Assembly (NCBI GenBank): GCA_033816765.1
Contig: CM066290.1
Span: 2,356,001-2,420,000, forward strand
From: Nothopassalora personata
Taxonomy: Eukaryota > Ascomycota > Dothideomycetes > Mycosphaerellales > Mycosphaerellaceae
Length of the DNA stretch: 64,000 bases
Direction: 5' to 3'
Shown here: positions 19,617 through 43,108 of the stretch, piece after piece
Position numbering within the stretch: position 1 is the first letter of the stretch
How the letters are laid out: every line of letters starts with the position of its first letter
Notes under the pieces: model-generated
Told to the model about the DNA's origin: nothing
Seen by the model: only the letters and a program-made list of their open reading frames with translations
Databases searched by the model: none
Translations under genes and position numbers: made by a program

Positions 19617-20762
19617 TTAAGCTGGGAGGGCAGGGCTTATGACAACCTCAGGAAACGCTTTGAGCACACGATCATTGAGTCCAAGAGCATATTCCCGCCA
19701 CTGTTCACGAACATGATCACTCAGCAGAGCTCCCCCAAAGCGCTTTTCAACCTCCACCCCGATAATCATAGGACTGGACATAGGGCTGTCCTGACGGTTC
19801 CCGTCATTCAGAATGTCCACGAATCCGTCGAACAGAATCGTGTCTTGCTTCTGAAGGATCCTGTCGAAGTGGGCCTGACCTGCTTGCTGCCGAGACTGAT
19901 CCAGCTCCAGCCGGTGCCACAGCTTCTCGTGCTTCTTGGCCGCCTTTCGGACACTCTCGTCTTCGCTCTTGCCAATGACGAGACCCTCCTCGACGAACCG
20001 GTACCTACGCATCATCATATGGATAGGCCCGCCGAAGAATCGGATCATGTTGATGATGCATTGCCACTCTGCTTTCTTGGCATATGCAGTGTCCATCGCC
20101 CACAAGACCTCCCTGGCATTCCGGAAAGCTTCTTCGCGGATACTCTCCGGCATGTATGCGAAAGTGTTGTTGGTCTCTCCTTCGGCTCTGTGCTTATAAA
20201 AGGCGATGGCGTCGTACAGAGTGTCTCCAATCTCTGCTAGGACATTCCACTGATCGTTGGTGAACCACACATCGTCCATGTCGTTGCAGACCAGTGCGGC
20301 TGCGATCGTGAACCGGCACAGAGCATCGCAATCTCGAAGTCGAAACCAGTTGGCCGGACCTGAAGAAACTGCCTCAACGTAGCTGCGGAAGAATTGCTCG
20401 TGCTTTCGGTCGCTGGTCTTGGCACTCGTGACAGTCAGGAACGTCTTGTATTCTCGGGCCATGTCTTTGGCGCCTGCTGTGTCTTCGAAAAGGTCATACA
20501 GCACCTGATTGAGGCTGTAGCCCAGCATGTTGTCGTCGTCCGCGGTCATGTCGAACAGCGAGCCCTGGAATTCGGCGATGGTCCCGATGATGATGATGCG
20601 CATGAACGCTACGTAGCGCTTCCAGTTGGTATAGTGTGGGATGACACATCGCGAGTACTCCCACGCGCAAGCGAACACTTCTGCCTTGACCGCAGGTGGC
20701 AGGTCGACGCTCTGAAGATCGTTCGCGATGTCATATGGGTAATGCCACTTGTAGCTCGGCAT
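19617..20762 (-). CDS. aba3: BcABA3-like sesquiterpene synthase (alpha-ionylideneethane synthase type)
   Basis: Intact single-exon gene for 381 residues, starting at a genuine ATG. The translation matches, from memory of the family, the unusual Botrytis ABA3 synthase: residues 7-19 (HYPYDIANDLQSV), 32-56 (CAWEYSRCVIPHYTNWKRYVAFMR), a DCDALxRFTIAxALxCNDMDD stretch at 144-164, FYKHRAEGET at 188-197 and FFGGPIHMMMRRYRFVEE at 242-259. This family lacks the classic DDxxD terpene cyclase fold signature. Known members convert farnesyl diphosphate to alpha-ionylideneethane, the first committed step of fungal abscisic acid synthesis. The acidic cluster at 160-164 is a candidate metal site (inference). 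It is divergent from the P450 gene 1.5 kb away. It begins at the residue corresponding to the conserved core, so an N-terminal extension present in some homologues is missing or lies in an unseen exon. Confidence 0.85.
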   Translation of the reverse strand: MPSYKWHYPYDIANDLQSVDLPPAVKAEVFACAWEYSRCVIPHYTNWKRYVAFMRIIIIGTIAEFQGSLFDMTADDDNMLGYSLNQVLYDLFEDTAGAKDMAREYKTFLTVTSAKTSDRKHEQFFRSYVEAVSSGPANWFRLRDCDALCRFTIAAALVCNDMDDVWFTNDQWNVLAEIGDTLYDAIAFYKHRAEGETNNTFAYMPESIREEAFRNAREVLWAMDTAYAKKAEWQCIINMIRFFGGPIHMMMRRYRFVEEGLVIGKSEDESVRKAAKKHEKLWHRLELDQSRQQAGQAHFDRILQKQDTILFDGFVDILNDGNRQDSPMSSPMIIGVEVEKRFGGALLSDHVREQWREYALGLNDRVLKAFPEVVISPALPA

Positions 20763-22304
20763 AATGACAGAGAAGGTTGTCGTCGTATCACGCTGTAAGA
20801 TGTGGGGAGCTCTTGATTTGTCGGGGCTTCGTCAGGCTCGACTGCGACCTCATGCTGGCTTTTAATGGCTACGTTCGATCACCCAGCATCCAAGATGGGT
20901 CAATTGGAACGAGTGCGAATAGCGCCATCTTCATCTGAATTAGCGCCGTGAGGCCTGCCCGTCCGGCGTAGCCAAGGTGCATGATCAGTCCGATCGGCGC
21001 AGTTGTATCGATAGACAGCCTGATTGCTGATCACCACTACTCTCGCTCCATGCACAAGCAATCGCGATCGAGCGCAGTCGTATTATGGCGCATCGATACC
21101 CTTGACTTGGCCAACCGCGTTGATGCTCTGGAGCACCACTTCTTTCACCTAGCTTATCCTGCAAAAGGGATGACGAGGCTCCAGCCTCGAGCTCACCTCG
21201 AGCTCCTTTGGTCATGCACAGGGGGACCGACAGGTCTGAGCACCATTTCCTGCAGCCGGCAGCATACATGGAGGAGACTTGTTGGCGGCGGCCGTGAATA
21301 TGATAGCCCTTGCAAGGGTGCGACCATCTCGATGCGCCATAACAGCCCCGATAGGGATCCACAGACTATTGTGACGGTAATACGGCCCAATCCGTGGATT
21401 CTGTTCTTGCGATTGTGCAATTGACTCTACCCCAGGCTTTCTCAGCATCTGCAAGCATTCCCACTCACAGCACAGTCACCTGCTATCGCTTTGGCGTGGA
21501 CACTTCCCCGGACCCCAGTGGGGCGAAGGTTCCCCCAGCAGATCCCGATGGATTAATGCTTCAAAACCCTATGTTATTTTCGCTGGTAGCGACGTACAAG
21601 CGCAGAGGCTTCAGCCTCGATGCGCACGAGTTGTCGAGCGGCCTGCAAGGCCATGTTGTTGCACTCTTATTAGTGCTCCAAATCGCGTTCTTAATTTGAC
21701 AGGATTTGATAAGGACTTGATTCAGCAACTGGGGGCTGATCGGCTATCTGGGGGCCGGGGAAGTGTCGAGGTCGCGTTGGGTTAGTAATCTGCGATGACA
21801 TGAATGAGGAATCAGTCGGCCACAGGGTAATTTGCACAAGACTTTGACGGCATATGACAGGGGACGGATTCCGACGGCTCCACGACATCGGCCGGACAAA
21901 AAAGCTAAGCTGTGTACAAGCTCTCTGCCTGCAATTTATACACCATGGTCCAGCAACATCCCGGCAATGATTGCGCTCAAGACACGAGGCATCGATCAAC
22001 TGCGATCTTCTCGATGAAACACTATTATAGCACTCTTGAATGTTCCACGAACCTTGCCCGAATATGTTGGAAGTAGTGGATGACTGGCATCGTCGCACCC
22101 TCAAGGACAAACAGACCCCGAACGATCATGGCTAGAGTGCGGAAGGATCTGCTAGATGGAATTGCCCTGAATCTCGGCGTCAGAGCACTGTCGTTCAGCT
22201 CACGGCGTTATATTCCTCTAGTTGGCGCTACTTAACGGGAAGCGTTCTCACTACGGAGACTCACTGCAGCCTTGATTGCCCCAGTGACCAACGACACGGT
22301 TGAG
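20763..22304. other. Intergenic region between divergent cluster genes
   Basis: Normal composition, no RIP signature. Short overlapping frames on both strands (for example 20981-21424 and 21691-22110) lack codon bias and similarity to anything I know, and I take them as noise. It should contain both promoters of the synthase and the first P450. No regulator binding motif could be identified with confidence. Confidence 0.5.
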
Positions 22305-24005
22305 ATGGCACCATTATTGTCAACTTACCTCGCCATCGAGCAGCCTCTTCTGCTGTTGCCTGCAGTTCTCGGTCTTTGGATCATTTACGCCGTCACCAAA
22401 CACATATACAACGCACTATACGGCCCGCTTGCTAAAGTCCCGGGTCCACGATTGAGAGCCCTATCTGTGATTCCACACCTCAAAGCATGCTGGCAAGGAA
22501 ACGAAGCGACCTCAGTGATCGACCTCCATAGACAGTATGGTCGCGTAGTACGCCTGGCTCCTGACCTGGTGGCGCTTATCGGCGAAGGGCACATATGGAA
22601 GACGATATATGCTTCGAAATCGCAAGGACTCTCGGCTTTCCCCAAGGATACTCTGTTCTACGACAAGCCATTCAACGAGGTACCGGGTCCTTTCGGCTCC
22701 GAAGATCCCGTCAGCTTGCGGATGAGGAAGACTATGGCTCCAGCGTTCAGCGATTCTGGACTGAAGCAGTACGAGCCCAAATTCCAGGCTTGGTGTAGAG
22801 CACTCGCGAAACGGCTGGATCAGTTTGCCAGGGATAAGGAGCCCACTGACATGGTGAAGATTTTCAACTGTGAGTCTCGCGGCAGAACCGCGATGCTGCA
22901 TCTACCTGCATACTGATGAGTGCCAGGCACGACTTTCGACGTGATGAGCGACATGCTTCTCTCCGAGCCTCTGCATCTGCTGGAAAAAGGAGACTATGTG
23001 CCCTTCGTGCGGCTCATCTTCAACATTCTTCGCCACGTCACACGCCTGAAGACTGTCCGCTACTTCAACAGAACTTTCGGCGAGCAATTGCAGCTGCTGC
23101 TCATGAAGATCCCGGCTGTCAGGGAATTCGCAGAAAAGCACCACCGCTTCATTACTGATCGTGTGCATGAGAGACTTGCCAAGACGCCAGCGCAGCCTGA
23201 CATTTGGAGTCTTGTGACGGCTGAGACGTCCACGGCGTCCCTGATTTCGGAAGAGGAGCGATACTCCATTGCAAACGAGCTGATGATTGCTGGAACAGAG
23301 ACCAGTGCCACGGTCCTGAGCGGCTGCTTGTATACTCTTCTGAAGAATCCTGCTTGGTTGTCAGCTTTGACCGAAGATCTTCGTTCCAAGTATACGGCGA
23401 ATGAAGATTTCAGCAGCGACATCACCATGGCTTCCCTTCAAGCCAACAAACTCCTCGAAGCCATCTTGAAAGAATCAATGAGGTATGTCCCCGTGTCGCT
23501 CCAGTCTTCGAGACGTAAGCCGCTGATCTGTCGATTCAGGATTTATCCACCGGTTCCAATTGGATTCGCACGCTTTGTACCTCAGGGCGGCACAGAGCTG
23601 GAAGGCTACTACATTCCCGAGGGTAATCGAGTCGTAGTGTATCAGCTTGCCACCTACCGCGACCCAGACTTGTGGCTTGAGCCTGAAGCCTTCCATCCGG
23701 AGCGCTGGCTCGGCGATGAGAAATTCAAGAACGATCACCTCGATGCCTTTGAGCCCTTTTCCACGGGACCGAGAGGGTGTTCTGGCAAGGTAACATCCTT
23801 CACCACGTCTGCCTGATGCAATCGTCGCTAATGTTCAAACCTCTAGAACTTCGCCTGGAACGAAATGAGACTCATTCTTGCTACGACCCTGCTGAACTTC
23901 GACTTCCACTTGAGGGCCGAGTCGGCCAATTGGGCGGACCAGAAGGTCTTTCTTGTATGGGAGAAGTCAGCTCTGATGGTCGACGTGAAGAAGAGATCTG
24001 TGTAG
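22305..24005 (+). CDS. Cytochrome P450, intact, ABA-cluster type
   Basis: Four exons: 22305-22869, 22927-23482, 23540-23789, 23847-24005, giving 509 residues. All introns are GT..AG (57 nt each) and phases agree. The start is the ATG at 22305; the reading frame extends further upstream only with a TTG. Features: N-terminal membrane anchor (about 8-35), proline hinge VPGP, I-helix AGTETS near residue 307, ExxR (ESMR) near 372, PERW, and the heme loop FSTGPRGCSG with the cysteine near 453. It is therefore a complete microsomal class II P450. In Botrytis two P450s (BcABA1, BcABA2) oxidise the ionylidene skeleton. I cannot say which of them this matches. It ends 229 bp from the convergent second P450. 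Confidence 0.85.
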
Positions 24006-24234: not shown

Positions 24235-25607
24235 CTATTGCCTTTCCGTGAGTCGGACCCACAGATTAGGCTTGAGCAATACCTGATACAGCTTGAGAGT
24301 CTCAGGCTGTGGCGTCAAACACCACATCTCATTGTCTTTCCGACGTTCGCCCGTCATATCGAGCTCTAGGTCGAAAGTGGATAGAAGATGTGACCCGATC
24401 AGTCTCATCTCCAAGAACGAGAGATCCTCGCCAATACACTTCTTGGGGCCGTGTCCGAATGGCCTGGAAGCGTTCAGGCGATCCTGGGCAAAATCCGGAT
24501 TCTCCTGAAGCCAACGTTCCGGCCTGAAAGAGTCTTGATTATGGAAGTTTGATGGTGACCGACCAGCAACCCAAGGAGATATAGAATCTTCGTTCTGCAG
24601 CAGATGGTGGATGACATCTTTGTTTGTCGTCTCCTTGTTAGCCAATCCTGTAACGCGGTGAGACGTCAGCGTGATTCATTCATGATCGACGTAGAGTTGC
24701 TCACTCTGCAGAGTCTTGTCCTTCGACTTTTGCATGTGCAGGATCCTCCACTTCGCCACTTCAGCAGGCATGAAAGCTTTGATCAGTAGAGTTCTGAACC
24801 AGGTATCAACACCGGCCACCTTCCTTATCGCTTGATCGTACGTGGCAAATATCGTAACATTAATGATCGACTTGGCCCATTCAGTTGCTGAGCCTTGTGC
24901 TAGGCAACCAAAGGGCTCGCCGTACGACAAATCTCCAATGACATCAAAGGTGATGAAGGAATCTTGACGGACGCCAGCATGATTGTCTCCCTTCCAGATG
25001 GGTGCTTCACTCACAGTAGTCGGACATGTTGGCCGGTTCACCCCTGGCCACTGTCTTGCGTAATGCTTCAATCAGGGCGGTAATGTGGCGTTGGATGATC
25101 TCCTCTTGCCCATAAAGGGCATTCTTGGAGAGTGCTGGTGCCAGTGCCTTACGTTGACGAGTATGTTCCTTGCCTTTCGCAAGTCCTACTCCAACGTAGC
25201 CATTCATAGGCGAAGCAACACCAATGAAGATCGGACTCTTTTCCATTACCTTCCCTTTCTAGCGGTTTTCAAATTAGCCAAATTGAAATTTTGGAAAGTC
25301 CAGCTCGTTTGTAACTTACACGATACCCATAGATGTCCTCCCATGCATCTGCGCTCGTGAAAAGAAGTTCGTTCGGCGCCACACGCACGACAGAACCATA
25401 TTTGCGGTGGAGGTTGTAGTAGTGACAATGCTGCAACCCGCTCGATAGCTTCAGAGCGCTTGGGATGTCTGTCACACCATGAGACCAGGGGCCTGGAAAA
25501 GATCGCAGCGGGTGGAACAGCCAACGATAGATCAACTGGGACCAAATCGCGACGGCGGCGATTGCTGCCGCAACGGTGGGCCAGGATGACAGCAATGCGA
25601 AAGCCAT
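24235..25607 (-). pseudogene. Cytochrome P450, second of cluster, with in-frame loss of I-helix to ExxR
   Basis: Exons on the minus strand: 25607-25320, 25258-25015, 24962-24705, 24647-24235, total 400 residues with consistent splice phases. N-terminal anchor, FPGPW hinge, the FDVIGDLSYGEPFGCL segment and a C-terminus with FRPERW and heme loop FGHGPKKCIG (cysteine near residue 333) are present. Between residues about 284 and 285 (LLQNED then SISPWVAG) roughly 110-150 residues normally found in the family are absent: the AGxxT I-helix, the K-helix ExxR and the following beta region. The frame is kept across the join. The heme loop also has K for the usual R. It may still be transcribed, but a P450 without I-helix and ExxR should not bind heme and oxygen properly, so I call it inactive. 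Its start lies 273 bp from the Copia insertion. Confidence 0.8.
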
Positions 25608-25880
25608 CGTGCTGTCGTGCTCTCAGAGTCGCCGGAAATGTGGTAGACGAAGGAATGATCAATCTGCAACACCTGCATCGTTCCGAGATACTCAGTCTCC
25701 CACACTTTGGCTGACTCGACAGTTGCACAGCCAAGCTTCATGGCTGTATCGCTGGATGGGAAGACTAATCAAGTCATGACTGTTGATCGAGGGTGAAAAA
25801 CCGGCAGGTGAATCACCTCCCCTGGCCCCCCCCCCCCCCAGTACAGATGCATCTAGGCCGGACAGCAAATCATGGCATGC
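25608..25880. other. Truncated promoter region of second P450
   Basis: Non-repeat sequence between the P450 start and the Copia LTR, with a poly-C run near 25827-25840. It ends with CATGC (25876-25880), the left target duplication. The rest of the original upstream sequence now begins at 39735. Confidence 0.6.
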
Positions 25881-26129
25881 TGTAAAGCGCCAGGATGATG
25901 CATGGATAGCAGGTTTTGAGGGTGACATAACCTGTTGAGTGTGGTAATTACTTGTCCTTGGGAAATGAGATTAGGCACCTGAATTACAGGGATTAAGGGC
26001 CTCTTATTAAAAGAAGACTTATATAAGCACCTTAAGGGTGCCACTACTTGTAAAAAAACATGGTTTTTTATACCCTGATTTCCAGACTTAATACCCTAGT
26101 TCTAAACTTCCATCTCTACTAGTTTCACA
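25881..26129 (+). repeat. Copia-C 5' LTR
   Basis: 249 bp. Its outer (left) half keeps CA/TG sites that are RIP-mutated in the right LTR, while its inner half is mutated. Confidence 0.92.
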
Positions 26130-27847
26130 GTTATAAGCCCGAGTTAAGCAACTTAGGGTCTCTATTCGGAATTGCATATATCTATTGGACCTAATCGAGG
26201 TACACAATAGACCTTAGGCAATACCTTTAGGACCACCCGTCCGCTACGACAATAAAGGAACTAAACTGCTATAATCCCTCTATGTTTAATGACTTCTACC
26301 TTTAGACTTAGGCTAAAGTAGTTAGAATAGACTTGTAGAAGTATATAGAAGGGAAGTTATAGGACGGTACGACAACCTAGGAAATAGATCTCGATCTATT
26401 GCCTAAACCTTAGGAACTAGTTATAGGCCCTCTACTAAACCCTCCTACTAAAGACGATAATGCAGCTACATAGACCCTATTTAGTAGAATTAGCACATCG
26501 TACAACCTCCGGTATACGATGTATAGGGATTAGAAGAAAGAATACGAGGACTTTATAACTCGTAAACGCTCCCTAAAATCCTACTTCGAGAGGACTATTC
26601 TACAAATGTACCTTAACGACCTTCTTAGCCGACTAGATACCCTCTCTACTTAGTGGACATACATCAAAGCCAAACTAGAGCCTAAGACTAAGAGTAGAAG
26701 GGTGATTCTTTAGAGCTAACACAATAAGCTTATAAAGGGACCTAAGAGTAAGAATATCGACTAATTTCTTATAAAGTAGCTCGAGCTTAACCAAAAGCTT
26801 AGATAGAGGGGCTATCCACTTGCCCTATACATAAAAGATAACCTATGCCGCATGATTAAGGACACTATCGATGTAGCTAAAGGCAGAATCATTGCGGAAT
26901 TGAGTAATGACCTTAAAGACGCTGTTTAGAGGTGTCTTAAGTTTGCTAGAAGGAACCCTAGGGATTAATAGACTACTAGTCATCCCCTAGAAAAGATAAC
27001 GAGGGATCGCCTAAGGCAAACATGTGCTGAAATGACTGGAAAACCTCCTAATAAAGCATGCCTATTCCTTGGAAAATGCAATATCGTTAATTATAACTTA
27101 CGACTACCCTAGGAAAGCATAGACAATACCTAGAAAGGTTAGCTAAAGACCTACCGTAAGTATCTAAGGGACAATCCTCAATTCTATAAGCGCTAGGCAA
27201 GTAGATATAAGGATCCTAAGGCCCTTAAACTTATAAAGGATCTTTAGTCTAACTCTAATAAAGACTAAAGAATAGAGGGAACGGATTCGAGACCTAGAGG
27301 GTTATACGGACTACGCGCAATTAAGACCTAGGGAGTATACTCCTCTAACAACTTATCGGAGGAGGACTCCTAGCTACTGGATGGGAGGTCTAACGTACAC
27401 ATAATCAATAAACCTACGAAGGCCGAATTCACCCTAGAATCAATCCCTAAGGATACACTAGTCTACGCAGCGGCTACTACCCTTCGAGGAGTGGTTAAGG
27501 GTACCGTAAAGGTCCGTATTAAGTTACTAGATAGACACCTAGTCACCTTAAACCTTGAGAATACCCTCTACATTCTAGGATTTCACTACAATATTATCTC
27601 ACTCCCTTAAATACGAAAGAAAGATCTATTCTTAGACGAGCGTATAGATATTTAGTATAATAGAAACAATGCTAGGGTAGTAAAGGTCTATAGATTAGGG
27701 GATCTGCCATACCTAAATATAGATACTCTAGCAAAAGGAGACCCTATAACGATTACTAAGTGGCCTGTATCCGAAGATAGTACCCTACTTTCAGTTGTAG
27801 AGGCTCTAAAATGACAATTAAGGAGCGTAGCAATAGCTAGGAGCCGT

Positions 27848-28165
27848 ATGCCCCTACCTGTAGTACCGAGGACAATAAAGGACTACTATAAGGTCCTTAG
27901 ACACCCTAGGCTAGAGCGTATAATGCACCTACAAGACGCAGTGAAGGGCATTAAGATTGTAGGATTAAAGGAACCACCTAAAACTAACGAGTGCGAATCT
28001 TATACCCTCTTAAAAGGACATAAGAGGATATCTCGAAGGTCTAGGATTAAGATACGACCTCCGTCGATACTTAAGGACATCTTAATTAACCTTATAGAAT
28101 TCGATGTAGGGTACAATAGGGATCGATATACCTTCTATGCTAGCGATGAGGATACAGGACTTTAA
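27848..28165 (+). pseudogene. Copia-C integrase N-terminal fragment (surviving open stretch)
   Basis: A 105-residue open frame by chance free of RIP stops. It contains a GAG-pre-integrase HPRLERIMHLQD motif and the beginning of the integrase core (IEFDVGYNRDRYTFYASDEDTG). It is part of pol, not an independent gene. Confidence 0.8.
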
Positions 28166-28496
28166 TTTAACTGGAATTTTCCTCGAAGAACCTAGGAGAA
28201 CGTAATAGAGGCATATCTAGAACTTATAAGGTTTATTCGATCCTTTAGAAGGTCACTTACCGTACTGTATTTAGATAACGACAAGGCCTACGGGGTAGTA
28301 TTTAAGTCTTAGCTGCTAAGAGACGGGGTTACTTAGAAACTAACTGCCCCCTATGTGCCCGCTTAGGACCTAGTAGAAATATCTGGAAAGCACTTAATTA
28401 TTACTACTAGGGCATTGACATTGTTAGTAGGCCTACCTTTAAACCTATAGCCTAAGATCGTCTTAATAGCTGCTTACCTTATAAACAGAACACTAT

Positions 28497-28844
28497 TGTT
28501 AGGAACCGCTGTACGTTATCACAACTCGGGCTTGGATCTTTGCAGGGATGTCTCAATCAGTTATGAAGGTAGTGGTTCCAAACAGTATATGGTGTATACT
28601 TAAAATGAGTTGAGCACGAGGCTCCTATCTACTCGTAAAGAAGCGTCGTCTATATAGTGCCATGTCTTGGCGTGATCTGTCCTGCTCTGCCCTGAGCGAG
28701 TCTGATCAACTGATCAAGAGTGATCAGGACCGATCAGTCCTGATCGCTCTGTCACGTGACTCCCCAGGCATCCATGTCTGCAGCTTCGTCTGGTTTCCTG
28801 CTCCGTTGTCCAATCATTTGCACCGATAACACTGTTCCGTAACA
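28497..28844 (+). mobile_element. Solo LTR of family D (variant) inside Copia-C integrase
   Basis: 348 bp, TGTTAGGAACCGC to CCGTAACA, flanked by perfect ACTAT duplications (28492-28496 and 28845-28849). The first 180 bp or so match the other two family-D LTRs; the remainder is different sequence, rich in TGATCA-type motifs. It is not RIP-mutated. Confidence 0.92.
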
Positions 28845-31259
28845 ACTATCTAAGAAGTTAGGCTAGAGGACCCTATTTAACGCTGCTACGGGCATTAAGC
28901 TAAGCCTTACTCATATCTACAAAATAGGTTCTAGGGCATACGCTTACAAGACGAATAAGAAAGAACGCCTACGCGCCTACAAAATGGATTCTCGATGCTA
29001 TATTGGTTACTTAGTTAGATTTAAAGGTCATAACATCTACCGAATCTAGATACTATCCTATAGACAAGTTATAAGATCTAGGGATGTTACCTTTAATAAG
29101 AAGTTAAGGTACGAGGGCCTATACGACGTTAACCTCGGACTGGCTATTTAAGACAACGAGAGACTTCTATGTGTCGTAGAACCTCTAAGGCTAGCCTATA
29201 AGGGACAATTTAAGGAATTGCTATTAACAATTAACCTTTCGACTAACCCTTAAGCTTAGGGGGTAGGGGACAGCATACCTTAAGAAGAGGTAGATAAGGA
29301 AATCCCATATAATAATCCGATGAAAATAAGGGAATCGGAATTTAATTATTAATAGATACACCCCTAAACTTTGCAACTAGATCCGCAAATAGATCCAGAA
29401 ACCCAACTCTAGCTATTTAGACCATTCGTTCCTCTAGGGGATACATATAAGTTAAGAGGATTAATTAGACCTAGACCTAAAACTCTAGACTCTAAGGATA
29501 CCTACGACATAATCTATTAGAACAAGAAACCGAGGTACGACGAAGAACGAGTACACTCGATTCTTACTATTAAGAGGATTAAAGTCTTAGCTACTCTCTC
29601 GAAGGGACCTTAAGAGAGTAATACCTTAACTACATCGTCTAAAACAACCGGAATAGGGAACACACTACCCCCTAAACTAAAGCAATAGAAGGACCTTAAC
29701 ACACACCCTTATAAGGAAGCATTTAGGGCAGTAAGTGTTAAAGAATTTAAGAAGCAATTTACGATAAACACCCTGTCTTAGTATAATAAGGTCGAAGTAG
29801 TAGGACACCCGATAACGTTAATAACTTAGGTATAGAAATACAAGCTTAACTAAAACGTAGAACTCCTAAAATGCAAGGCTCGAGTATGCGCTCGAGGCGA
29901 TTAAAAGGACGCTATAGGGGAAACCTACGTAGCAACCCTTTATGCAAGACTCTTTAGGTATATAATAGCCCTAGTAGCCTATTTTAACCTTAAGACACTG
30001 TAGATAGACGCCGTAAACGCGTTTCTCAATACCCCTATACTATCGCTAGTATATATATATGCCCCTAAAGAATTTAAGAAGGAAGGAAAACTTCTAAGAT
30101 ACTATAAAGCCCTTTACGGATTTAAGGAGTCCCCTCTACTATAGTATTTAGAGCTTAAAAACACCCTTAACGACCTCGGCCTATCTAAAGTTACGGACTG
30201 TCTCTTTATTAACAGGGAATTTTCAGTCCTAGTTTTCTTCTATGTAGATAATATTTGCTTTACTTAGCCCTTAAAATCTGAATTAAGAGCTAAGGAGCTT
30301 ATTTAAGGACTAACTAACAAATACGAGATAAAGGTAATAGGACCTATTAAATAGTTCTACGGGATTTACATTACTCGCAATTGTTAACAGCGGATCCTTA
30401 AACTTAACTAGAAGACCTATATCGAGAAGATTAGTCATCGCTACGGTATCTCAAGACCGGAGAAGAGGATTAAAACTCCCCTACTAGGGGGATATGTCGG
30501 CCTTAGAAATGAACTTTAGGCCACTACGGAAGAGATTAACGTTTATAGGTCCTAAGTAGGATCGGTGAACTTCGTAGCAGTAGAAACGCGCCCTAATATA
30601 TCCTTTTTAGTCTCTCTTCTTTCTTAGCACCTAACCAACCCTACAAAGGAGGCTCTTAGGGCAGTAAGACACTTAATTTAATACCTTCTCTACACTACGG
30701 ATTATTCGATTAAGTACTACGGCCTACCTAAACCTTCGGACTCAACGCTACTAGAATTCTATAGGGCCTTAGATACCTTATTTACCGACGACAAGGAAAC
30801 TCGTAGATTAAGTAAGGCCTTTGTCTTTTTCCTTTTTAAGGGGATTATCGACTAGAGAGCAGTTAAGCAGGGAATAGTTACGAAATCAAGCACTAAATTA
30901 GAGCTATATGCCCTTAGTTACGCCGCCTTAGAGGTCCTATAGTAGGATAGGCTTTTTAGTATAGTTACCCTTAAATTAGAGAATCGGATACTGCTATACT
31001 GTAATAACCAGTAGACTATAAGGATTGTCAAGACCCTAAATAGTAGAATTAATACTAAGATAAGGCATGTAGACGTCTAACAATGCTAGCTTAGGGAACA
31101 GTACTAAGTAGGACGTCTTAAAATTAGCTAGATAAGGACATAGGAGATAGCCGCGGACGGTCTAACTAAGGTCCTAACTCCTTAACAGCACTAGCGGTTT
31201 GTTAATCACCTTAATTTAGGAGATTAGCAAACAGGTATACCCTCGCTTTAATAGCTAGG

Positions 31260-32223: not shown

Positions 32224-32420
32224 TGTAAGGGGCAGCCTAGTGGCTAACCCCTACATGTAGCCTTGTATGTAACATGCGGTCGCGACCGGCTACTAAGCCG
32301 TACGTAATACGCATAAGTACACCTTGCGACGCGCGATGCGTCTTAAATAAAAGGCAAGAATTAGTTTATCTACGACTAGCAGGTCGTAGGCGTGCTATAC
32401 ATTGCGACATCCCTTTAATA
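32224..32420 (+). repeat. Gypsy-A copy 2, 5' LTR
   Basis: TGTAAGGGGCAGCC at the left end, TTTAATA at the right end (TTTAACA in the 3' LTR). Confidence 0.9.
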
Positions 32421-33580: not shown

Positions 33581-33778
33581 GCGACTAGGGAAAAGGTAGA
33601 GGACTAGAAGTGGGTCGCTCCTAAGTCCGAGTTTTCCTAAAGTCGACCCCTTAAGGCGAGTAGATATGTGTCTATCGCAGCGACTAGGGAAAAGGTAGAG
33701 GACTATAAGTAGGTCGCTCCTAAGTCCGAGTTTTCCTAAAGTCGACCCCTTAAGGCGAGTAGATACGTGTCTAGCGCG
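33581..33778 (+). repeat. 99-bp tandem duplication in Gypsy-A copy 2
   Basis: Two head-to-tail units (33581-33679 and 33680-33778) beginning GCGACTAGGGAAAAGG. Gypsy-A copy 1 has one unit. The length is 33 codons, so the gag-protease frame was not shifted. The units differ at a few RIP-type sites. Confidence 0.9.
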
Positions 33779-35768
33779 TTACTTGCGAGGCGTAGTCGAG
33801 ACTCGTAAGGGCTTTCGCGAGGCTACGTTTCTCCTAGATAACTATACGGATCTTAGCCTAGTGTCGTATAAGTATATACTCCGACATTAAATGCAACCTA
33901 TTAATAGGGCAAGGCTACCGAAGTTAGAGTCGTATGCGCATAACCTAGGGTATTGCTACGGCGCCTTTGCGGTTCGGCTACGACTCGCTAATAACGCGGG
34001 AGTAGAGCGCGTAAGTGACGCTATCTACTACGCGGTGCCTATAGGTAGGCTATTAGTGATCTTAGGTAGACCCTAGCGGCATCGTAATCGGATAGTAAAG
34101 ACCGATAAGGATAACTAGTAGTACTACGGTGTAGAGACGCCTACGATTTAGTAGCGTGACGTACGCGAGTTCCTTAAGGATCTCGAGAGCTTAAAGTAGG
34201 TTTATACGATAAGTGTTCGGGCTATTGCTATAGTAGTACCTAAAGGAGAGGGCCCCTCGTAGCCTAAAGAATTTATAGACTTCCGAGATATATACGTACC
34301 TAATAAGTAGGCGAAGCGCAAGATACCCGACGGGGTTAAGTATACGATTAATCTCGTTAAAGGAAAGAAACCCCCTTTTAAGCCGCTATACTACTAGTCC
34401 TTAACTAAGTTAGAGGCCTTAAAGGAGTACCTTACGTAAGCAATAGAGAAGGGGTAGATTAGGCGGTCCGTAAGCGAGGCGGGTACGCCTATCCTGTTTG
34501 TGCTAAAGAAGAATAGTACTCTTAGGCTCTATGTTAATTATAGAGGCCTAAATAAGATTACAGTAAAGAACCGATACCCCCTGCCCCTAATTAGCGAGAC
34601 GCTAGATAGGCTATTAGGTTCTAGGTTCTTTACTATAATCGATTTAAAGGACGCCTACTATCGTATCCCTATTAAGCGAGGCGATAAGTAGAAGACTACG
34701 TTTCGCACGCGATACGGACACTACGAGTACCTAGTAATGCCGTTCGGGTTAACTAACGCACCGGTAACCTTTTAAGGGTATATTAACAAGGCGCTAACCG
34801 GCTTAGTTAATAACATTTACGTAGTCTACCTAGATAATATCCTTATCTATAGCGAGACGCGTAAGGCACACGTACGAGCCGTACGCGAAGTGCTTACGAG
34901 GCTACGAAAGTTTGCCCTATTCGCAAACCCTAAGAAGTGTTACTTCTTCTAGGAGAGTGTAGAGTTTCTTAGGTTTGTCGTAAGCGCCGTAGGCGTGTCG
35001 ATAGATAGGAGTAGGGTAGCCGCTATCGAGGAATGGCCTATACCTACGACCTTTTATAAGGTCTAGTCCTTCCTTAGGTTTTGCAACTTCTACCGGCGTT
35101 TTATAGAAGGATACTTAAGGGTCTACAAGCCCCTAACGGACCTACTAAAGGGATCTAAGGACGGTAAGAAGTAGGGCCCTCTTACTTAGACCTTAAGCGA
35201 AGAGTAGGCGTTTCGATAGCTTAAGGCCGGATTCTTAGGTGCACTAATACTTAGGCACTTCGATCCTACGCTACGTACGCGAGTCGAGACGGATGCCTTA
35301 GGTTTCGCGATCGTAGGTATTATATCCTAATTGTTTAGTACTAAGTGGCATCCTATCGCGTTCTATTTACGTAAGATAATACTAGCTAAGTGCAACTACG
35401 AGACGCACGATTAGGAGCTACTTATAGTAGTTAAGGCTTTTAAGTATTAGAGGCTATACTTAGAGGGCGCTACGTATACGGTGCGAGTGCTAGTCGACTA
35501 CGCTAACCTATAGGGCTTTATAATAGTAAAGTAGCTAAATAGGCGGTAAGCTCGATAGGCTACGTTCCTATAGTCTTTTAATTTTATAGTAGAGCATCAG
35601 CCGGGTAAGACTAACCTAGCCGACGCGCCTTCGAGACGTAGTAACTACGTAGCTATAACGCAATAAACTTCGAACTTGCTACCTACCTTATAAAGTAAGC
35701 TATCTTTCTAGAAGGAGTCTCTAGAAGGGATAAGCGAGCCGACGGTAAAGCGCGCGCTTACTACCTAC

Positions 35769-36084
35769 TGTTAGGAACCGCTGTACGTTATCACAACTCG
35801 GGCTTGGATCTTTGCAGGGATGTCTCAATCAGTTATGAAGGTAGTGGTTCCAAACAGTATATGGTGTATACTTAAAATGAGTTGAGCACAAAGCTCCTAT
35901 CTACTTGCAAAAGAGCGTCGTCTATATAGTGCCATGTCTTGGCGCGGTCTGTCCTGCTCTCTCGGTAGAGCACCAAGAGCGCTCTGCTATGAGTCACACA
36001 AGAGCGCCCGCTCATTGGCAGCGCGTGTCCCTATTCCCAACGAATGAAGTTCTTCCACGTGCACGATCGTACCGGACCGTAACA
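35769..36084 (+). mobile_element. Solo LTR of family D inside Gypsy-A copy 2
   Basis: 316 bp, nearly identical to 8980-9295, flanked by CCTAC duplications (35764-35768 and 36085-36089). CA/TG content is normal. Confidence 0.92.
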
Positions 36085-37698
36085 CCTACGAGGCGATGTA
36101 GGGCGACATAGGCGCGGTAATAGTAGTACGGAGAGGTAACCTTCCCTATTAAGACAAGCCGTCGTTACTAGTAGTAGTGTACGCTGCAGTAATATAGGGT
36201 TAAGCTTATAGCTCGACGGGTAAGTTAATCCTACTCTTAATAAAGATCGCGTAGTAGTAAGACGACTAGTATATCGTATGCTTAGCGTAGGCGCTAAGCG
36301 CGAGGGACGCTAAGGGATAGCATATAAAGGATAACCTTATATACTACGGAGACGCGATCGTAGTACCTAGGGATTACGCAATTAGGTCGCATCTAATTCG
36401 TATATACTACGACGACGTCCTCGCGGGTCACTTTAGAAGGACTAAGACTAAAGAGCTGTTACGACGTAATTATTAGTAAGACTCACTTAGTACGGACGTG
36501 AAACAATACGTCCAAGCCTATAGAACCTACTAGGGTTCGAAGGCGAGGCGCTATCGACCCTACGGCGAGCTGTAACCGCTTCCTAGACCGGAGCGACCGT
36601 AGTAGGAAATTACTATAGATTTTATTACGGACCTACCTCTAAGTACGCGAGCCGGTTACGTATATAATGCGATCCTAGTAATAGTCGATCGCTACTTAAA
36701 AATAAGCTTATATATCCCAACGACGAAGACTTGCACAGCCGTAGAGCTTACGAGGCTCCTACGAGACGAAGTCGTACGACACTATAGTGTCCCGTTAGGC
36801 ATAGTGAGCGACCGAGGTCCGGTCTTTACTAGTCAGTTTTAGAGTAACTTCTACTTCGAGGCGCGTGTAAAGCGTAAGCTATCTACGGCCTTTCACCCTT
36901 AGACTAACGGCTAAACTAAGAGGGTAAACTAAACCCTCGAACAATACCTTCGTTATTACTACAGTAACAATTAAACTAAGTGGGCTAAGTGGCTTATAGT
37001 TGCTAAATTCGTAGCTAATAACAGCATCTACCTAACACTACGGATAAGTCCGTTCGAAATAGCGCACGGTTAGCGACCTAAGATTACCCCTACACTAACT
37101 AGATCTCGAGACGAGACCTAGGGGGGGGAAGTACTAGTAGCGGTAATAGCTACGAGTCGCATACGAAAACTACGCGCTATACTCGAGGAGCGATAGAAGG
37201 CTGTAGTAGAAAGCTAGGCTCGCTACTATAATAAGACCTACTAAGCTAAGACCTACCGCGTAGGTAACTTAGTCCTATTATTAACGAAGAACCTTAAGTT
37301 AGCAGTACTAAAGAAGAAGATAGGTCCAAAGTTTATCGGCCTATACCGCATTACGGACGCTATCGGTTCGTAGGCGTACCGCCTAGCGCTACTAGCCGAC
37401 TTAAGGCTCTATAACGTCTTCTATGTCTCTCTCCTTGAGCCGTATATCGGTAGCGATAAGGATGGACCCGTACCCCCTCTAGCTAATAAGGACGGAGAGT
37501 ATAAGGTAGAGGCAGTGCTAGATAGGCGTAAGCGTAAGGGTAAGCTGTAGTATCTAGTCTAGTAGAAGGACTAGCTAGAGGAGTATAATAGCTAGGAACC
37601 GGCGGAGGGCCCCGCGAATACGGATCGCATAGTAGCCGACTATAAGGCGTTAAGGAGAAGCAAATAAGACTAGTACTAGAGTATAAACAAAACTTTTC

Positions 37699-38739
37699 TT
37701 AACTATAAACAAAACAAAAGCTAAAGAGTAGCGCGCCTACTAGGGGCTACGTAGAGTAGTAGTAGGCGAGGAGCTCGCGAGCAGCGTATAAGGCGAGCGC
37801 CTCAGTTGTCGTTACGTAGTAACTTAGGTAAGAATGCCTAGTCGGCGGCGGTAGTATCGATGTTCTACGCCTATAGGAACTAGGACTACGGTTAGTAGGG
37901 TACACGTAGGCGAGGAATATACGACTTACGGCGCGGCCGAGTTCGAACAGCCTATTAAGGGCGCGGTTCTGCTCCTACTAGAGCGCGAGGGCTTCGGCGG
38001 CGGGGGCGGCGGTAGTAGTAGCGGCGGCGGCGGAGGCACGCATACGGGTCTCCCCGGTACGCTTATGCTTATAGGTATTAAACTGCCTAATAGCCTATAG
38101 GAAGGGTTAGCCGAAGCATAGGGGACGCACTAGAGCCCTCCCCCGCGAGTAGTAGTCGACTCGTACGAGCGAAGTAGCGACTTACCTCCTTAATGTCGTT
38201 ACCTAGCTAGGCACATAAGCGGATCTGCTCTACTAGCTCCTACTACTAGAGGTCTATAGGCGCCTAGCCTATTATAGCCGTAAGGAAGTCGCGCTAGGAC
38301 CGCGCGGCGCGTAGGCGGCTTACTAGCGAGGCGATAGCGTAGCTAGTATTAAGTACGCAGCTATGTTTACTACGCCTATAGCGGCTATACTTCTTTAGGA
38401 GCTCGCCGGTAGTAACACTATTATAGTCATTGGCCTCGTCTAGCAAGTAGTTAGCATATAAATCGTAGGCGACGCGCGTAGAGACTTACCCCTAACGAAG
38501 TACGGGAGGCACCGTATGTATATATTAATTCTCTACGAGAGCTTAGTAGCTAGCGAGGGCGTTAGTAGCTACGAGGGTAATACTAGTCGCTTGCGACTAC
38601 TAGGCGTTCTAGGGGCGTCGCGCACTAGAGCCGCCTAGCGGCGCTCGTCTTCTACGGCGCTAGTAGTGCTATCGCTACTAGTACTACTAGAGGAGGCGGA
38701 GCGGCTAGAGAATAGCGGCAAGGAGGGCACGGTAGACAT
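37699..38739 (-). pseudogene. Antisense coding-like region of Gypsy-A copy 2
   Basis: Counterpart of 13568-14596. Readable minus-strand pieces: NALASYQALVENQYIHTVPP, VAYDLYANYLLDEANDY, LLKKYSRYRRSK, RQFNTYKHKRTGETRMRA and NRALNRLFELGRAVSR. Frame changes fall at the same places as in copy 1. Stops are mostly TAG/TAA at positions that would be CAG/CAA. Confidence 0.5.
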
Positions 38740-39040
38740 AATAATAATAATAATGCTAGCGAGGCGCTTACGATAATAGTGCAGTGCGGGTGCGTAGTAG
38801 TGGTGTAGCGAAGGTAATAAGCTAGGGAGCGTGCTAAGAAAGGGCTAGGTTAGGCTAGAGTTTTATGCCCCTAACTAGCTACGTCGGCATAGTAACTAAG
38901 CCTTACTTACCTACACCTACATAACGATACGCACGCAACCCGCATGTAGGCCGTATAGTAACTATAGTTCTAGAAGTACATAGGAGCCTCTACGTAGTAA
39001 CTAGCGAGCTAAGGACAGCTCGCACGGGAGGGGAGGCAAT

Positions 39041-39237
39041 TGTAAGGGGTAGCCTAGTAGCTAACCCCTACATATAGCCTTGTAGATAACATGCGGTCGC
39101 GACCGGCTGCTAAGCCGTACGTAACACGTATAAGTACACCTTGCGACGCGCGATGCGTCTTAAACAAAAGGCAAGAATTAGTTTATCTACGACTAGCAGG
39201 TCGTAGGCGTGCTATACATTGCGACATCCCTTTAACA
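39041..39237 (+). repeat. Gypsy-A copy 2, 3' LTR
   Basis: Preceded by the purine tract CACGGGAGGGGAGG. Followed by CAGAG. Confidence 0.9.
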
Positions 39238-39484
39238 CAGAGCATAATTAAGTCTACTCTAAAGAAGGGAATAGCCTCTAAGAAGAGAGAGGCACCCTAA
39301 GACGAAGAAACTAATAAAGAGGAAACCCCGAAAAAGAAGATAAAGGGTACTATTACTAGTTAGGAGGGAGTTATCGAAGACCTTATCTATAAAGTTGAGG
39401 GTAACATAAACAAGGTTATAAAGGATATAAAGGTCCTTAGCGCTAAGATTACTCTACTTAGTTCCTATGTAGAGTAAGGGGGTG

Positions 39485-39734
39485 TATAAAGCGCTAGGAT
39501 AATGCATGAATAGTAGGTTTTAAGGGTGACATAACCTAATTAAGTGTGGTAATTACTTGTCCTTAGGAAATGAGATTAGGCACCTGAATTACAGGGATTA
39601 AGGGCCTCTTATCAAAAGAAGACTTATATAAGCACCTTAAGGGTGCCACTAATTGTAAAAAAACATGGTTTTTCATACCCTGATTTCTAGACTTAATACC
39701 CTAGTTCCAAACTTCCATCTCCACTAGTTTCACA
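39485..39734 (+). repeat. Copia-C 3' LTR
   Basis: 250 bp, preceded by a purine tract (AGAGTAAGGGGGTG). Its inner (left) half is RIP-mutated and its outer (right) part is not. Confidence 0.92.
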
Positions 39735-39739
39735 CATGC

Positions 39740-40165
39740 TTTCCTGCAGCAACGAAGTCGATAAGGCCCAGCTGGGCGATAACCTCGCGCTAGTACGCGT
39801 GCTGCCAAGATGTCGTTGACGAGACCTGACAATTCGGGCGGGTTCTGAAGGCTTTGAAGATGCTGTTCCTCTATCCTGGCATGGACGATACAAGGGTGTA
39901 TATGTTGGCCAAGCTGACGAGCACTGGCCATCGCACCATTAATGCTGGTGATGGCTGTAAATTACACCTGTAGGTGCCGCTGGAACAGGAAGAGAAGACA
40001 TGATGTTACCCTGATGGTTTGATGGAAGTGGAAGGTGTTGTTGAGGATGGCGCGACCCTCCACATTTGGCGCGGGGCAAGGCCGCCTGTAGCGCAACAAA
40101 CTTTATTACGACGTGGAGCCGGTGGGGAACGACGCGCGCAGATCCAGGACCGGATTGCTTGCCAC
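39740..40165. other. Single-copy spacer between Copia-C and the DNA transposon
   Basis: Normal composition with CA/TG retained. Before the Copia insertion it joined the sequence now ending at 25880. No gene was recognised; the short minus-strand frames here have no support. Confidence 0.5.
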
Positions 40166-41510
40166 GCAACCTGCGGACAGCAAAATAGAAACTAGCCCCC
40201 ACTCCCGCTCCCTGCGCAGCCTTGTCGCAATCTCGTAAGTTTTACTCCCTCTTCGAGATAACAATACTAGTAACGATGCCCGAACATTGGAATACTCCTA
40301 CGAAGAGCGAAGTCCGCGGCGCGAAGAAAATGCTCGACTTTTTAGCCGCCGAGGGAAAATATAACGAGCCGCAAAAACTCGAAACCGTAGGAAAGCTATT
40401 CGGTACCCGTAAAGGACAAGTTTCGAAGACGCTTTCTTCGAAAGAACGACGTACTTTCGCGCCGAACGAAGAGCCTCGCGGCGGTTACCGCGGCGACGAC
40501 GTATTACGTCTAGGACAAGAACAAATAGACGACGCCGTCGACGCTATCGAGAAGAACGAGTACGAAGGACACGACCTCGATTACGGCTCTCTACGCTACG
40601 AAGCGAATCTCCCGGACGTCGACGATAGGACTATAAGACGCGCGCTACGGAAAGAGAATATAGGGCGATATATAGCGCGTACGGAGGAAGAACTCGACGA
40701 CGGACACGCCGTAGCGCGAGTAGCCTTCGCAAAAAAACTACTCGCCGAACGCCCGAATAAAGAAGACTATCGAAATATACTCTTTACGGACGAGTTCTAT
40801 TTCGGACAAGGCTACGAAGAGAATAGACATTATATCTTTCGACGCGTAGGGAGTCGTAACCGTCGAGAATGTATTCGCCGTATTTCGAAGCGAGCGAAAG
40901 GCGTAAAAGGACGAAGGAAAGGCCCGAAAAGAGACCCGATACCGCGAAACGACGAAGAATCGAAGGACGTACATTTTTTCGTTATAACCGGCTATAATCT
41001 AGGCGTCCGATACTACGAGTATACGCCGCGGAATATAAACGGTAAAATGTCTAGCGAGCAATATATCGAAGAATTCCTTAAACCGATTATTCTACCGCTT
41101 CTTAAAGAGCGTCCGGGATCTATTATCGAAGAGGACGTCGATAGTTCGCATACTTCGGCGAAGACTACGGCGTTTAAAAAGGCAAACGGTATACCGTATT
41201 ATATAAACGCTCGTACTTCGCCGGACTTCTCGGTCGTCGAAACAATAGCGGGTATAACGAAGAATAAGTTTCGAAAGTACGCGCGGTTTACGAGAGAGGA
41301 CGTACGGGCGGAGGCGATACGGAGTTTCGAGGAAATTACGGATAAACAAGTAAACAATAGCGTAGATAGTATGCCCGGACGTCTAAAAGCGTGTTTAGAT
41401 AACGAAGGTCAAAAGACGCAATACTAAACGTTGTTTGTTGTCGTATTGTCGTTGTTTAAAGTGCGGAGTGTCTAAAAATCTTAGTTTCCATTTTGCTGTC
41501 CGTAGGTTGC
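40166..41510 (+). mobile_element. DD34E DNA transposon, apparently intact
   Basis: Terminal inverted repeats of 29 bp: 40166-40194 (GCAACCTGCGGACAGCAAAA then TAGAAACTA) and the reverse complement of 41482-41510, differing only at two G/A positions that are both TG-to-TA changes. Length 1345 bp with one transposase gene. Both outer flanks carry CAC (40163-40165 and 41511-41513), a possible 3-bp target duplication. The expected TA of Tc1/mariner insertions is not seen. Confidence 0.85.
40276..41427 (+). CDS. Tc1/IS630-type DD34E transposase
   Basis: Intact 383-residue frame from the ATG at 40276; the frame is open upstream only from a TTG. The N-terminal half carries helix-turn-helix-like DNA-binding sequence (KLFGTRKGQVSKTLS). 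The DDE domain has D1 in ILFTDEFYFG, D2 in IIEEDVDSSHTS, and the acidic third residue in SPDFSVVETI, with 34 residues between D2 and the final E. Fungal relatives share the NGKMSSEQYIEEFL region. Codon use is extreme: CpA and TpG occur about once or twice per 60 bases, nearly always where glutamine, histidine, methionine, tryptophan or cysteine require them, while CpG-ending and CpG-starting codons are common. It could be active in cut-and-paste transposition. Confidence 0.9.
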   Translation: MPEHWNTPTKSEVRGAKKMLDFLAAEGKYNEPQKLETVGKLFGTRKGQVSKTLSSKERRTFAPNEEPRGGYRGDDVLRLGQEQIDDAVDAIEKNEYEGHDLDYGSLRYEANLPDVDDRTIRRALRKENIGRYIARTEEELDDGHAVARVAFAKKLLAERPNKEDYRNILFTDEFYFGQGYEENRHYIFRRVGSRNRRECIRRISKRAKGVKGRRKGPKRDPIPRNDEESKDVHFFVITGYNLGVRYYEYTPRNINGKMSSEQYIEEFLKPIILPLLKERPGSIIEEDVDSSHTSAKTTAFKKANGIPYYINARTSPDFSVVETIAGITKNKFRKYARFTREDVRAEAIRSFEEITDKQVNNSVDSMPGRLKACLDNEGQKTQY

Positions 41511-42299
41511 CACGTTGTCGACGACGAGGGCGACCTCAAATCGAGGCGTAGACGAATGTGATATATCTCGCCCAATAGCGCATTAGGGAGTCGAACGAGT
41601 ATCAAGTCTCGTCGCGAGGCATCTAAGATTGCCAGGTTTGTCTTGGATTGTGTCAATGTCAACCGTGTCCATGCATGGCGCCGCCGTTTTGCACACGAAA
41701 ATCGGCATGTGACAGTCAATGCATTCACAGACCTACTAAGCTGGGTCCGCGAGCGAAAGACTATCTAATGCATGAGCCTTATGGACGTACTGGGCTCGCC
41801 ATCGCCGATTCCACGGAAGGATACACCCTTGTGCAGACATCATCGTCGCCCAATCTCCGGTGGAAAATTGCATGCAGGCTGATCTGGGGTTGTGGACTTG
41901 AGGCACCTACCATGTGGTGCACCATGTCCAAGCGAGGAGCTAAAGATGGGCCGAACCTTGTTGATTATGCTTGAAGATCCGGACACATGCGCTAGACAAG
42001 GGACAAGCTGACACAGTATCCCACGAGACTATATCGGTGCACCTAGGTTCTGTCGGATAGCGACATGTTACTCCGGTTTGTGCTTACAAGGTTGTGTGCT
42101 GCTGCTTGACAGCACGAAGATGCATCGACCGACAGTACCCCTGTTCACATCCCACTTCCTGTGTCAAGCAGACTGGGCTGGTCATCTCCCGCTGAGGCGC
42201 CCGAACATCTCGGACAGTGCCTAACATCTTCTTGCACGTTCTGCCTGCACTGCAACGATCGACGGACGCCCCCATTGTTACCACCCGCATTCTACTAAC
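41511..42299. other. Upstream region of the SDR gene
   Basis: Normal composition. Overlapping short frames on both strands (such as 41648-41974) have no recognisable content. It presumably contains the SDR promoter. Confidence 0.5.
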
Positions 42300-43108
42300 A
42301 TGAAAGTCGTTGCAATCACCGGAGGAGCATCCGGCATAGGTCTTGCAACAGCCAAACTTCTGGTAGAACGAGGCGCCAAAGTTAGCATTGCAGATATCGC
42401 GGGCCTGGAAAAAGCCGTCCTCGAGATAGCCCAACATGCAGCTGTGCCAGATAGCGTCTACGCCCACAACGTAGATGTGAGCGACTTGTCCCAAGTCCAA
42501 GCTTGGATCGATGCCACCGTCGAACGATTTGGGCAACTGGATGGCGCTACAAACATCGCGGGAGTATACGACTACCCGACGGGTGAACATTGGCATGAGC
42601 AACGCGGCATAGAAAAGTGGGGTCACGTCATCGGGGTTAACTTGACCGGCGTTGCAAATTGCTTACACGTCGAGCTGGAGCATATGGCGTCAGCAGCTGC
42701 AAGGACCGGCAGGAAAGCCAGCATTGTGAACATGACTTCGGTCGCCGGATTTCGAGCTCGGGGTGGAAGTCCTGCGTATGTTCCTTGCATTGGTTGTCGA
42801 GAATCTATTGTTGACATGAGTCTAGGTACATTGCTAGTAAGCACGGGGTCATCGGCCTCACGAAGGCATTGGCGAAAGATTATGGTCCGGTCGGCATCAC
42901 CATCAACGCCGTTGCGCCAGGCGCTATCGACACACCCATGGTTGCAGACCTTGGGCGAGAAGTGGGCAACAAGCTGGTGGCCACGATACCAGTCCCACGA
43001 AGAGGGACTGCAGAGGAAATTGCGAAGCTTGTCGCTTTTCTGTTGTCCGACGATGCCACTTATATCACCGGAGCTACATATACTATCGATGGCGGGATGA
43101 CGGTGTGA
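42300..43108 (+). CDS. Short-chain dehydrogenase/reductase, ABA4-like candidate
   Basis: Two exons (42300-42775 and 42826-43108) separated by a 50-nt GT..AG intron give 252 residues. Classical SDR features: TGGASGIG cofactor loop at 8-15, an NIAG element near 90, the catalytic serine in NMTSVAG, YIASK (split by the intron, Tyr and Lys of the active site), PGAIDTPM and a C-terminal GATYTIDGGM. Members use NAD(P)H on alcohol/ketone pairs. In Botrytis the fourth ABA gene is an SDR that makes the final oxidation to ABA. That role is inferred here only from the neighbourhood of an ABA3-like synthase and two P450s. It is cut off from them by the transposons. Confidence 0.8.

What the first reader, a model, noticed from the sequence alone, without database searches (positions are those of the whole stretch)
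19617..43108. Abscisic-acid-type gene cluster split by nested transposons
A BcABA3-like synthase, two P450s and an SDR occur together, the same four enzyme classes as the Botrytis aba1-aba4 cluster. Seen: the synthase reads closely like ABA3 across its length, and the P450 and SDR motifs are clear. Known: fungal ABA is made from farnesyl diphosphate by ABA3, two P450s and an SDR. Inferred: this is a relic or remodelled ABA (or ionylidene-derived) pathway. One P450 is deleted and the SDR is now 16.7 kb from it, so full ABA synthesis is doubtful, but synthase, one P450 and SDR are intact and could make a shorter-pathway product.
Basis: partly seen in the sequence, partly recalled or inferred. 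Interest (0 to 1): 0.88.

Follow-up and report, generated by a model that had tools for sequence, protein, structure and literature searches.

The report
Transposon-split fungal terpene gene cluster
A fungus related to the tomato leaf-mould pathogen carries a small set of genes resembling those that other fungi use to make the plant hormone abscisic acid, but one of its four genes is broken, jumping DNA has pushed another away, and the accompanying genes look like distant cousins rather than the hormone genes themselves.

The parts
19617..20762 (-). ABA3-family sesquiterpene synthase, intronless, 381 aa, intact
22305..24005 (+). P450-A, four exons, 509 aa, intact, with I-helix AGTET, ExxR and FSTGPRGCSG
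24235..25607 (-). P450-B, broken: lacks about 74 aa with the ExxR; heme motif FGHGPKKCIG kept
   Evidence: pieces handled separately
25876..25880 (.). left target-site duplication CATGC of the outer LTR element
25881..39734 (+). outer LTR retroelement (LTRs about 250 bp, 93.6% alike), RIP-marked; coding strand not determined
28497..28844 (.). about 349-bp insert inside the outer element, 99% copies elsewhere
32224..39243 (+). second LTR retroelement nested in the outer one (LTRs 95.4% alike), approximate ends; coding strand not determined
39735..39739 (.). right target-site duplication CATGC
40166..41511 (+). Tc1-like DNA transposon with 29-bp terminal inverted repeats (93%) and an open 412-aa frame; Pfam HTH_Tnp_Tc3_2 only below its cut-off
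42300..43108 (+). short-chain dehydrogenase/reductase, two exons (42300-42775, 42826-43108), 252 aa, intact
8187..15099 (+). another copy of the inner LTR family, left of the cluster (approximate ends)

Best explanation
This is a Mycosphaerellaceae-type ABA3-family sesquiterpenoid cluster in the course of decay. The synthase most likely folds and cyclises farnesyl diphosphate as BcABA3 does, giving alpha-ionylideneethane or a near relative (inferred from predicted fold and kept residues). P450-A, an intact P450 of a narrow subfamily, then oxidises that product, and the SDR oxidises a resulting alcohol (both inferred from class). P450-B lacks the ExxR core (shown) and so should be inactive (inferred); its step is missing, and a search with its C-terminal piece found no other copy above 46% in the genome (shown). 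Abscisic acid itself is therefore unlikely to be made here; an ionylideneethane-type shunt product, or nothing if the locus is silent, is expected. The genes stood within about 8.3 kb before an LTR element, into which a second one inserted, and a Tc1-like element pushed the SDR 16.7 kb away.
For: Synthase: homology over its length and predicted fold of BcABA3; 66 of 72 columns that are at least 97% invariant in the 110 other listed hits are kept. Separate clade: 11 rows, 100/100, stem 0.58; CxxC..CxxC in 101 of the 120 listed hits but in 0 of the 10 clade rows, serine in the window at the three Cys columns tested. P450-A: 10-row clade with the window, support 100, stem 1.02. Constraint: differences from a close relative avoid conserved columns for synthase (3 of 134 vs 29 of 240, p 0.0005), P450-A (3 of 90 vs 134 of 397, p 5e-11) and SDR (3 of 56 vs 63 of 186, p 5e-6). 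P450-B: missing core, no other genomic match to its C-terminal piece above 46%. TE anatomy and RIP contrast: five transposon stretches CRI +1.06 to +2.29, the four genes -0.66 to -0.93. In Fulvia fulva the synthase and an SDR named aba4 are each listed with the same longest contig of 5,824,733 bp.
Against: No product, transcript or enzyme assay. BcABA1, BcABA2 and BcABA4 could not be compared directly, so P450-A could still be a fast-evolving ABA1 or ABA2. The constraint test counts changes on both branches; window-specific synthase changes alone are too few (1 of 134 conserved vs 9 of 240 variable columns, p 0.075), and with the 97% cut-off the synthase test weakens (2 of 72 vs 30 of 302, p 0.033). 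The P450-synthase pairing is not universal: orthologue-level P450-A hits are not listed for F. fulva, Septoria linicola or Ramularia though their synthases are, and Cercospora zeae-maydis shows the reverse (both lists capped at 120). The SDR lacks one of 34 invariant columns.
Confidence: 0.6

Rival explanations
1. A genuine ABA cluster by descent: P450-A is ABA1 (or ABA2) that evolved fast, P450-B was the other, the SDR is ABA4; ABA synthesis was lost when P450-B broke.
For: Same four enzyme classes as the Botrytis cluster; the SDR's best solved relative by sequence is levodione reductase, which acts on a trimethylcyclohexane ring (substrate recalled); Fulvia and Pseudocercospora rows named aba4 or ABA4 are on the SDR's side of the tree; a Z. 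tritici cluster was called ABA-like with 50% gene similarity.
Against: No Botrytis protein among the 120 listed P450-A hits while BcABA3 scores 53% in the same database; separate synthase clade and a 98 split from rows named BcABA4.
Confidence: 0.25
2. A fully dead relic: with P450-B broken and the locus walled in by RIP-marked repeats it is silenced, and the three intact genes are only awaiting decay.
For: Dense TE blocks: nested element on the right; AT-rich DNA with no frame of 120 aa or more in the three 10-kb pieces left of the window; relics of a second ABA3 and of a P450-A relative elsewhere in the genome.
Against: Three intact frames with no RIP signature; differences from relatives avoid conserved columns.
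Confidence: 0.25
3. The synthase was recruited to a different skeleton, and the clade makes a non-ionylidene sesquiterpenoid.
For: Long stem, loss of the CxxC pair and clade-specific changes at otherwise conserved columns.
Confidence: 0.25

Closest known systems
Botrytis cinerea ABA cluster bcaba1-bcaba4
   Same: Synthase family, two P450s and an SDR together; 53% synthase identity; pathway as in passages of PMC6876084
   Different: Window synthase in another clade without the C-terminal CxxC pair; P450-A not shown to be ABA1/ABA2; SDR apart from rows named BcABA4; one P450 broken; locus split by transposons
Zymoseptoria tritici putative ABA cluster (PMC8939313, passages read)
   Same: A synthase (P0009) and a P450 (P0123) from this species, in two strains, fall in the window's own clades
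   Different: Described as 8 shared genes, induced in planta, ABA not detected in vitro. I did not confirm that its core gene is P0009: a Z. brevis synthase (P0080) sits in another clade and keeps the CxxC pair, so the genus may hold both types
Fulvia fulva aba3 (P0001) and aba4 (P0242)
   Same: 92% synthase, 76% SDR over 72% of the query; both listed with the same longest contig of 5,824,733 bp
   Different: No P450-A row listed; its SDR record is 185 aa; F. fulva also has a full second ABA3 (P0116), of whose kind the window's genome shows only a relic
Crystal structures 8zac BcABA3, 8zad/8zae RuABA3, 8zaf/8zag SkABA3
   Different: 32 to 53% identity; product of the window enzyme unknown

Membership tests
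ABA3-type sesquiterpene synthase family | sequence homology over the whole chain | tested here: met
   53% over 98% to BcABA3, E 3.8e-133
ABA3-type sesquiterpene synthase family | ABA3 fold | tested here: met
ABA3-type sesquiterpene synthase family | family-invariant residues | tested here: met
   66 of 72 kept; three of the six misses are the C-terminal Cys columns
ABA3-type sesquiterpene synthase family | C-terminal CxxC..CxxC pair (common in the family; whether it defines it is my reading) | tested here: not met
   present in 101 of 120 listed hits, in 0 of 10 clade rows; Ser in the window
ABA3-type sesquiterpene synthase family | makes alpha-ionylideneethane from farnesyl diphosphate | not testable with these tools
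   needs an enzyme assay
Fungal ABA cluster (aba1-aba4) | synthase, two P450s and SDR clustered | tested here: met
   about 8.3 kb once the transposon lengths are subtracted (coordinates)
Fungal ABA cluster (aba1-aba4) | both P450s intact | tested here: not met
   P450-B lacks the ExxR region
Fungal ABA cluster (aba1-aba4) | P450s orthologous to ABA1 and ABA2 | tested here: inconclusive
   no Botrytis row in the 120 listed of 420 hits; no direct comparison possible
Fungal ABA cluster (aba1-aba4) | SDR orthologous to ABA4 | tested here: inconclusive
   98 split from rows named BcABA4, but three rows named aba4 or ABA4 on the window's side; names are annotators' labels
Fungal ABA cluster (aba1-aba4) | ABA production | not testable with these tools
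   needs culture and mass spectrometry
LTR retrotransposon (outer element) | paired LTRs and target-site duplication | tested here: met
   LTRs 93.6% alike, CATGC on both sides

The most novel reading that the evidence does not exclude
The Mycosphaerellaceae carry their own branch of ABA3-type chemistry: a CxxC-less synthase teamed with a P450 subfamily that is not ABA1 or ABA2, making an ionylideneethane-derived sesquiterpenoid other than abscisic acid. The aba3/aba4 names in Fulvia fulva, and possibly the 'ABA cluster' of Zymoseptoria tritici if its core gene is of this clade, would then be misleading, and this genome would show the pathway partly dismantled by transposons. (Odds lowered from 0.40 to 0.35 on checking, because the Z. 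tritici core gene was not confirmed to be of this clade.)
Probability: 0.35. Interest if true: 0.6.

Novelty: new variant of a known kind. Interest (0 to 1): 0.4.

Why it matters
The window's ABA3-type synthase matches no Pfam model, so inventories built on standard domains may miss such genes: the 2014 Cladosporium fulvum survey lists no terpene cyclase (PMC3895014, passages) although two ABA3-type proteins from that species are in the database. If the clade does not make abscisic acid, gene names that imply that these leaf fungi make the plant's own stress hormone would need re-testing, and a new set of ionylidene-type products would be open to study. The locus also gives a clear view of a biosynthetic cluster being taken apart while its remaining genes stay free of repeat-induced mutation.
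Full report
Setting. The window is C4:2356001-2420000 of a 54.5-Mb genome in 40 contigs. The DNA alternates between gene stretches, mostly 48-58% GC, and repeat blocks of about 37-51%.

The genes. The synthase is a single frame of 381 aa with no Pfam match. P450-A is complete in my four-exon model: 509 aa, PF00067 over residues 64-484, with AGTET, ExxR and FSTGPRGCSG. P450-B lies beside it on the other strand. All four of its pieces match P450s by BLAST, but only the C-terminal one passes Pfam's cut-off, and that piece lacks about 74 residues, corresponding to P450-A 332-405, that carry the ExxR (12 relatives have 68-75 residues there). The SDR has two exons, 252 aa, TGGASGIG, NIAG and YIASK, and keeps 33 of 34 columns that are at least 97% invariant in its listed relatives.

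The transposons. An LTR element occupies 25881-39734, with LTRs 93.6% alike (15 of 16 substitutions are transitions) and the duplication CATGC on both sides. Inside it lie a 349-bp insert also found 99% alike elsewhere and a whole second LTR element at about 32224-39243, whose family has a further copy at 8187-15099. A 1.3-kb query from that copy's right end met 38 places (its own included) that cover nearly the whole query at 92-100% identity, with only 40 of 1142 candidates scored. A Tc1-like element follows at 40166-41511, with 11 near-full-length copies of 99-100% identity counting the window's own. P450-B start to SDR start is 16.7 kb; without the two insertions it is about 1.5 kb, and the whole locus would be about 8.3 kb (subtraction of the coordinates above). 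The five transposon stretches measured carry a strong repeat-induced-mutation signature (composite index +1.06 to +2.29), while the four genes and the gaps between them do not (-0.66 to -1.28). To the left, three 10-kb pieces outside the window hold no frame of 120 aa or more.

It is not in the characterised clade. In a tree of 54 hits (of the 120 listed) plus the window, it pairs with F. fulva aba3 inside an 11-row clade with Septoria linicola, Ramularia, Zymoseptoria tritici and unnamed rows, support 100/100, stem 0.58 (the bootstrap had not fully settled, and the tree is unrooted). Botrytis, Leptosphaeria, Colletotrichum and bacterial rows lie outside, as do F. fulva's own second ABA3 (P0116) and a Zymoseptoria brevis row (P0080). 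A C-terminal CxxC-CxxC motif, present in 101 of the 120 listed hits, is absent from all 10 clade rows, and the window has serine at the three Cys columns tested. Nine more listed rows also fail the motif test; two of them (P0027 and P0066) were not in the tree and may belong to the clade.

The partner genes. P450-A's 120 listed hits (of 420 found, from a capped candidate list) contain no Botrytis row. Nine rows score 58-73% (the named ones are Cercospora zeae-maydis, Zymoseptoria and Teratosphaeria nubilosa), and all others 46% or less, other Mycosphaerellales included. In a tree of 35 of these hits the nine form a clade with the window, support 100, stem 1.02. The same database returned BcABA3 and the L. 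maculans synthase at 53-54%, so one-to-one ABA1/ABA2 orthology is unlikely; BcABA1 and BcABA2 themselves were not available to compare. Colletotrichum incanum and Diaporthe helianthi, reported to have ABA1-ABA3 (PMC10482981, passages), appear at 37-38%. The SDR groups with F. fulva, Sphaerulina and unnamed rows, within a side made mostly of Dothideomycetes plus one long-branched Colletotrichum row, split with support 98 from the side that holds the rows named BcABA4 and those from Botrytis and Sclerotinia (38 hits plus the window). Against a clean split, the Fulvia aba4 row and two Pseudocercospora rows named aba4 or ABA4 are on the window's side. Its best solved relative is levodione reductase, a suggestive but weak hint.

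Are the intact genes kept? Differences between the window and a close relative avoid conserved columns: synthase 3 of 134 against 29 of 240 variable columns, P450-A 3 of 90 against 134 of 397, SDR 3 of 56 against 63 of 186 (one-sided Fisher p 0.0005, 5e-11, 5e-6). With a 97% cut-off the synthase result is 2 of 72 against 30 of 302 (p 0.033). These differences fall on both branches; changes special to the window's synthase alone are too few (1 of 134 vs 9 of 240, p 0.075). Relics elsewhere show what decay looks like here: a gapped ABA3 stretch on C10, nearer to F. fulva's second copy (48%) than to BcABA3 (34%) of the two compared, and a P450-A-like fragment on C8.

Mechanism. In Botrytis, ABA3 makes alpha-ionylideneethane, ABA1 oxidises it to alpha-ionylideneacetic acid, ABA2 adds the 1' and 4' hydroxyls, and ABA4 oxidises the last alcohol; aba1, aba2 and aba3 are essential, aba4 is not (PMC6876084 and PMC9920419, passages). 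By analogy the window's synthase should supply an ionylideneethane-type hydrocarbon, P450-A one oxidation and the SDR an alcohol oxidation. The broken P450-B removes the remaining oxidation. A complete route to ABA is therefore unlikely; a shunt product is the best guess (inferred, untested).

Relation to what is known. Z. tritici has a cluster described as a putative ABA cluster (8 shared genes, 50% of genes similar to Botrytis, induced in planta, ABA not detected in vitro; PMC8939313, passages). A synthase and a P450 from this species belong to the window's clades, but I saw neither the gene order nor proof that this synthase is that cluster's core gene. In F. fulva the synthase and an SDR share the same longest contig length, but no P450-A row is listed. 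Transposon-associated loss and rearrangement of secondary-metabolite clusters is already suggested for Cladosporium fulvum (PMC3895014, passages), and RIP-affected sequence makes up 42.4% of that genome (PMC3510045, passages), so that part is ordinary for the group.

Verdict. Calling it an ABA cluster goes beyond the evidence, because the P450 and SDR orthologies were not shown and one P450 is broken. The most interesting open point is what the Mycosphaerellaceae branch of ABA3 enzymes makes.

Noticed in passing
window 40166-41511: Tc1-like transposon with an open 412-aa frame although CpA and TpG are depleted to 0.25 and 0.15 of expectation in that frame and CpG is 2.17. It looks like a coding transposon that has little left for repeat-induced mutation to act on; of 8 fetched copies, 2 (the window's included) keep the full frame, 5 do not and 1 was not matched by my motif check.
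   Followed up: partly
window 8187-15099 and 32224-39243: LTR family with CpA/TpG near 0.3 of expectation and CpG 1.4-1.45, yet the best-scored genomic places stay 92-95% alike over a 1.3-kb query (40 of 1142 candidates scored).
   Followed up: partly
L058 about 4902-5144 (C10:1575.9 kb): Relic of a second ABA3 synthase with internal gaps and a stop, nearer to F. fulva's second copy P0116 (48%) than to BcABA3 (34%), in GC-normal DNA.
   Followed up: partly
L057 4167-4495 (C8:71.2 kb): Fragment related to P450-A next to an AT-rich block.
   Followed up: partly
window 43442-43916: Inverted repeats of about 99 bp, 84% alike, bounding an AT-rich island just right of the SDR; MITE-like.
   Followed up: no
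window 53669-53754: Short exact tandem repeats (8-bp step) inside the DHHC palmitoyltransferase frame.
   Followed up: no
Zymoseptoria brevis P0080 and Z. tritici P0009: Two different ABA3 types in one genus: P0080 keeps the CxxC pair and groups with Teratosphaeria, P0009 lacks it and is in the window's clade. Which one is the core of the published Z. tritici ABA cluster is open.
   Followed up: no
Fulvia fulva proteins P0001 and P0116: Two ABA3-type synthases in a species whose 2014 inventory lists no terpene cyclase (PMC3895014); the 2022 assembly paper lists four terpene synthases without naming them in the passages seen (PMC9453070).
   Followed up: no
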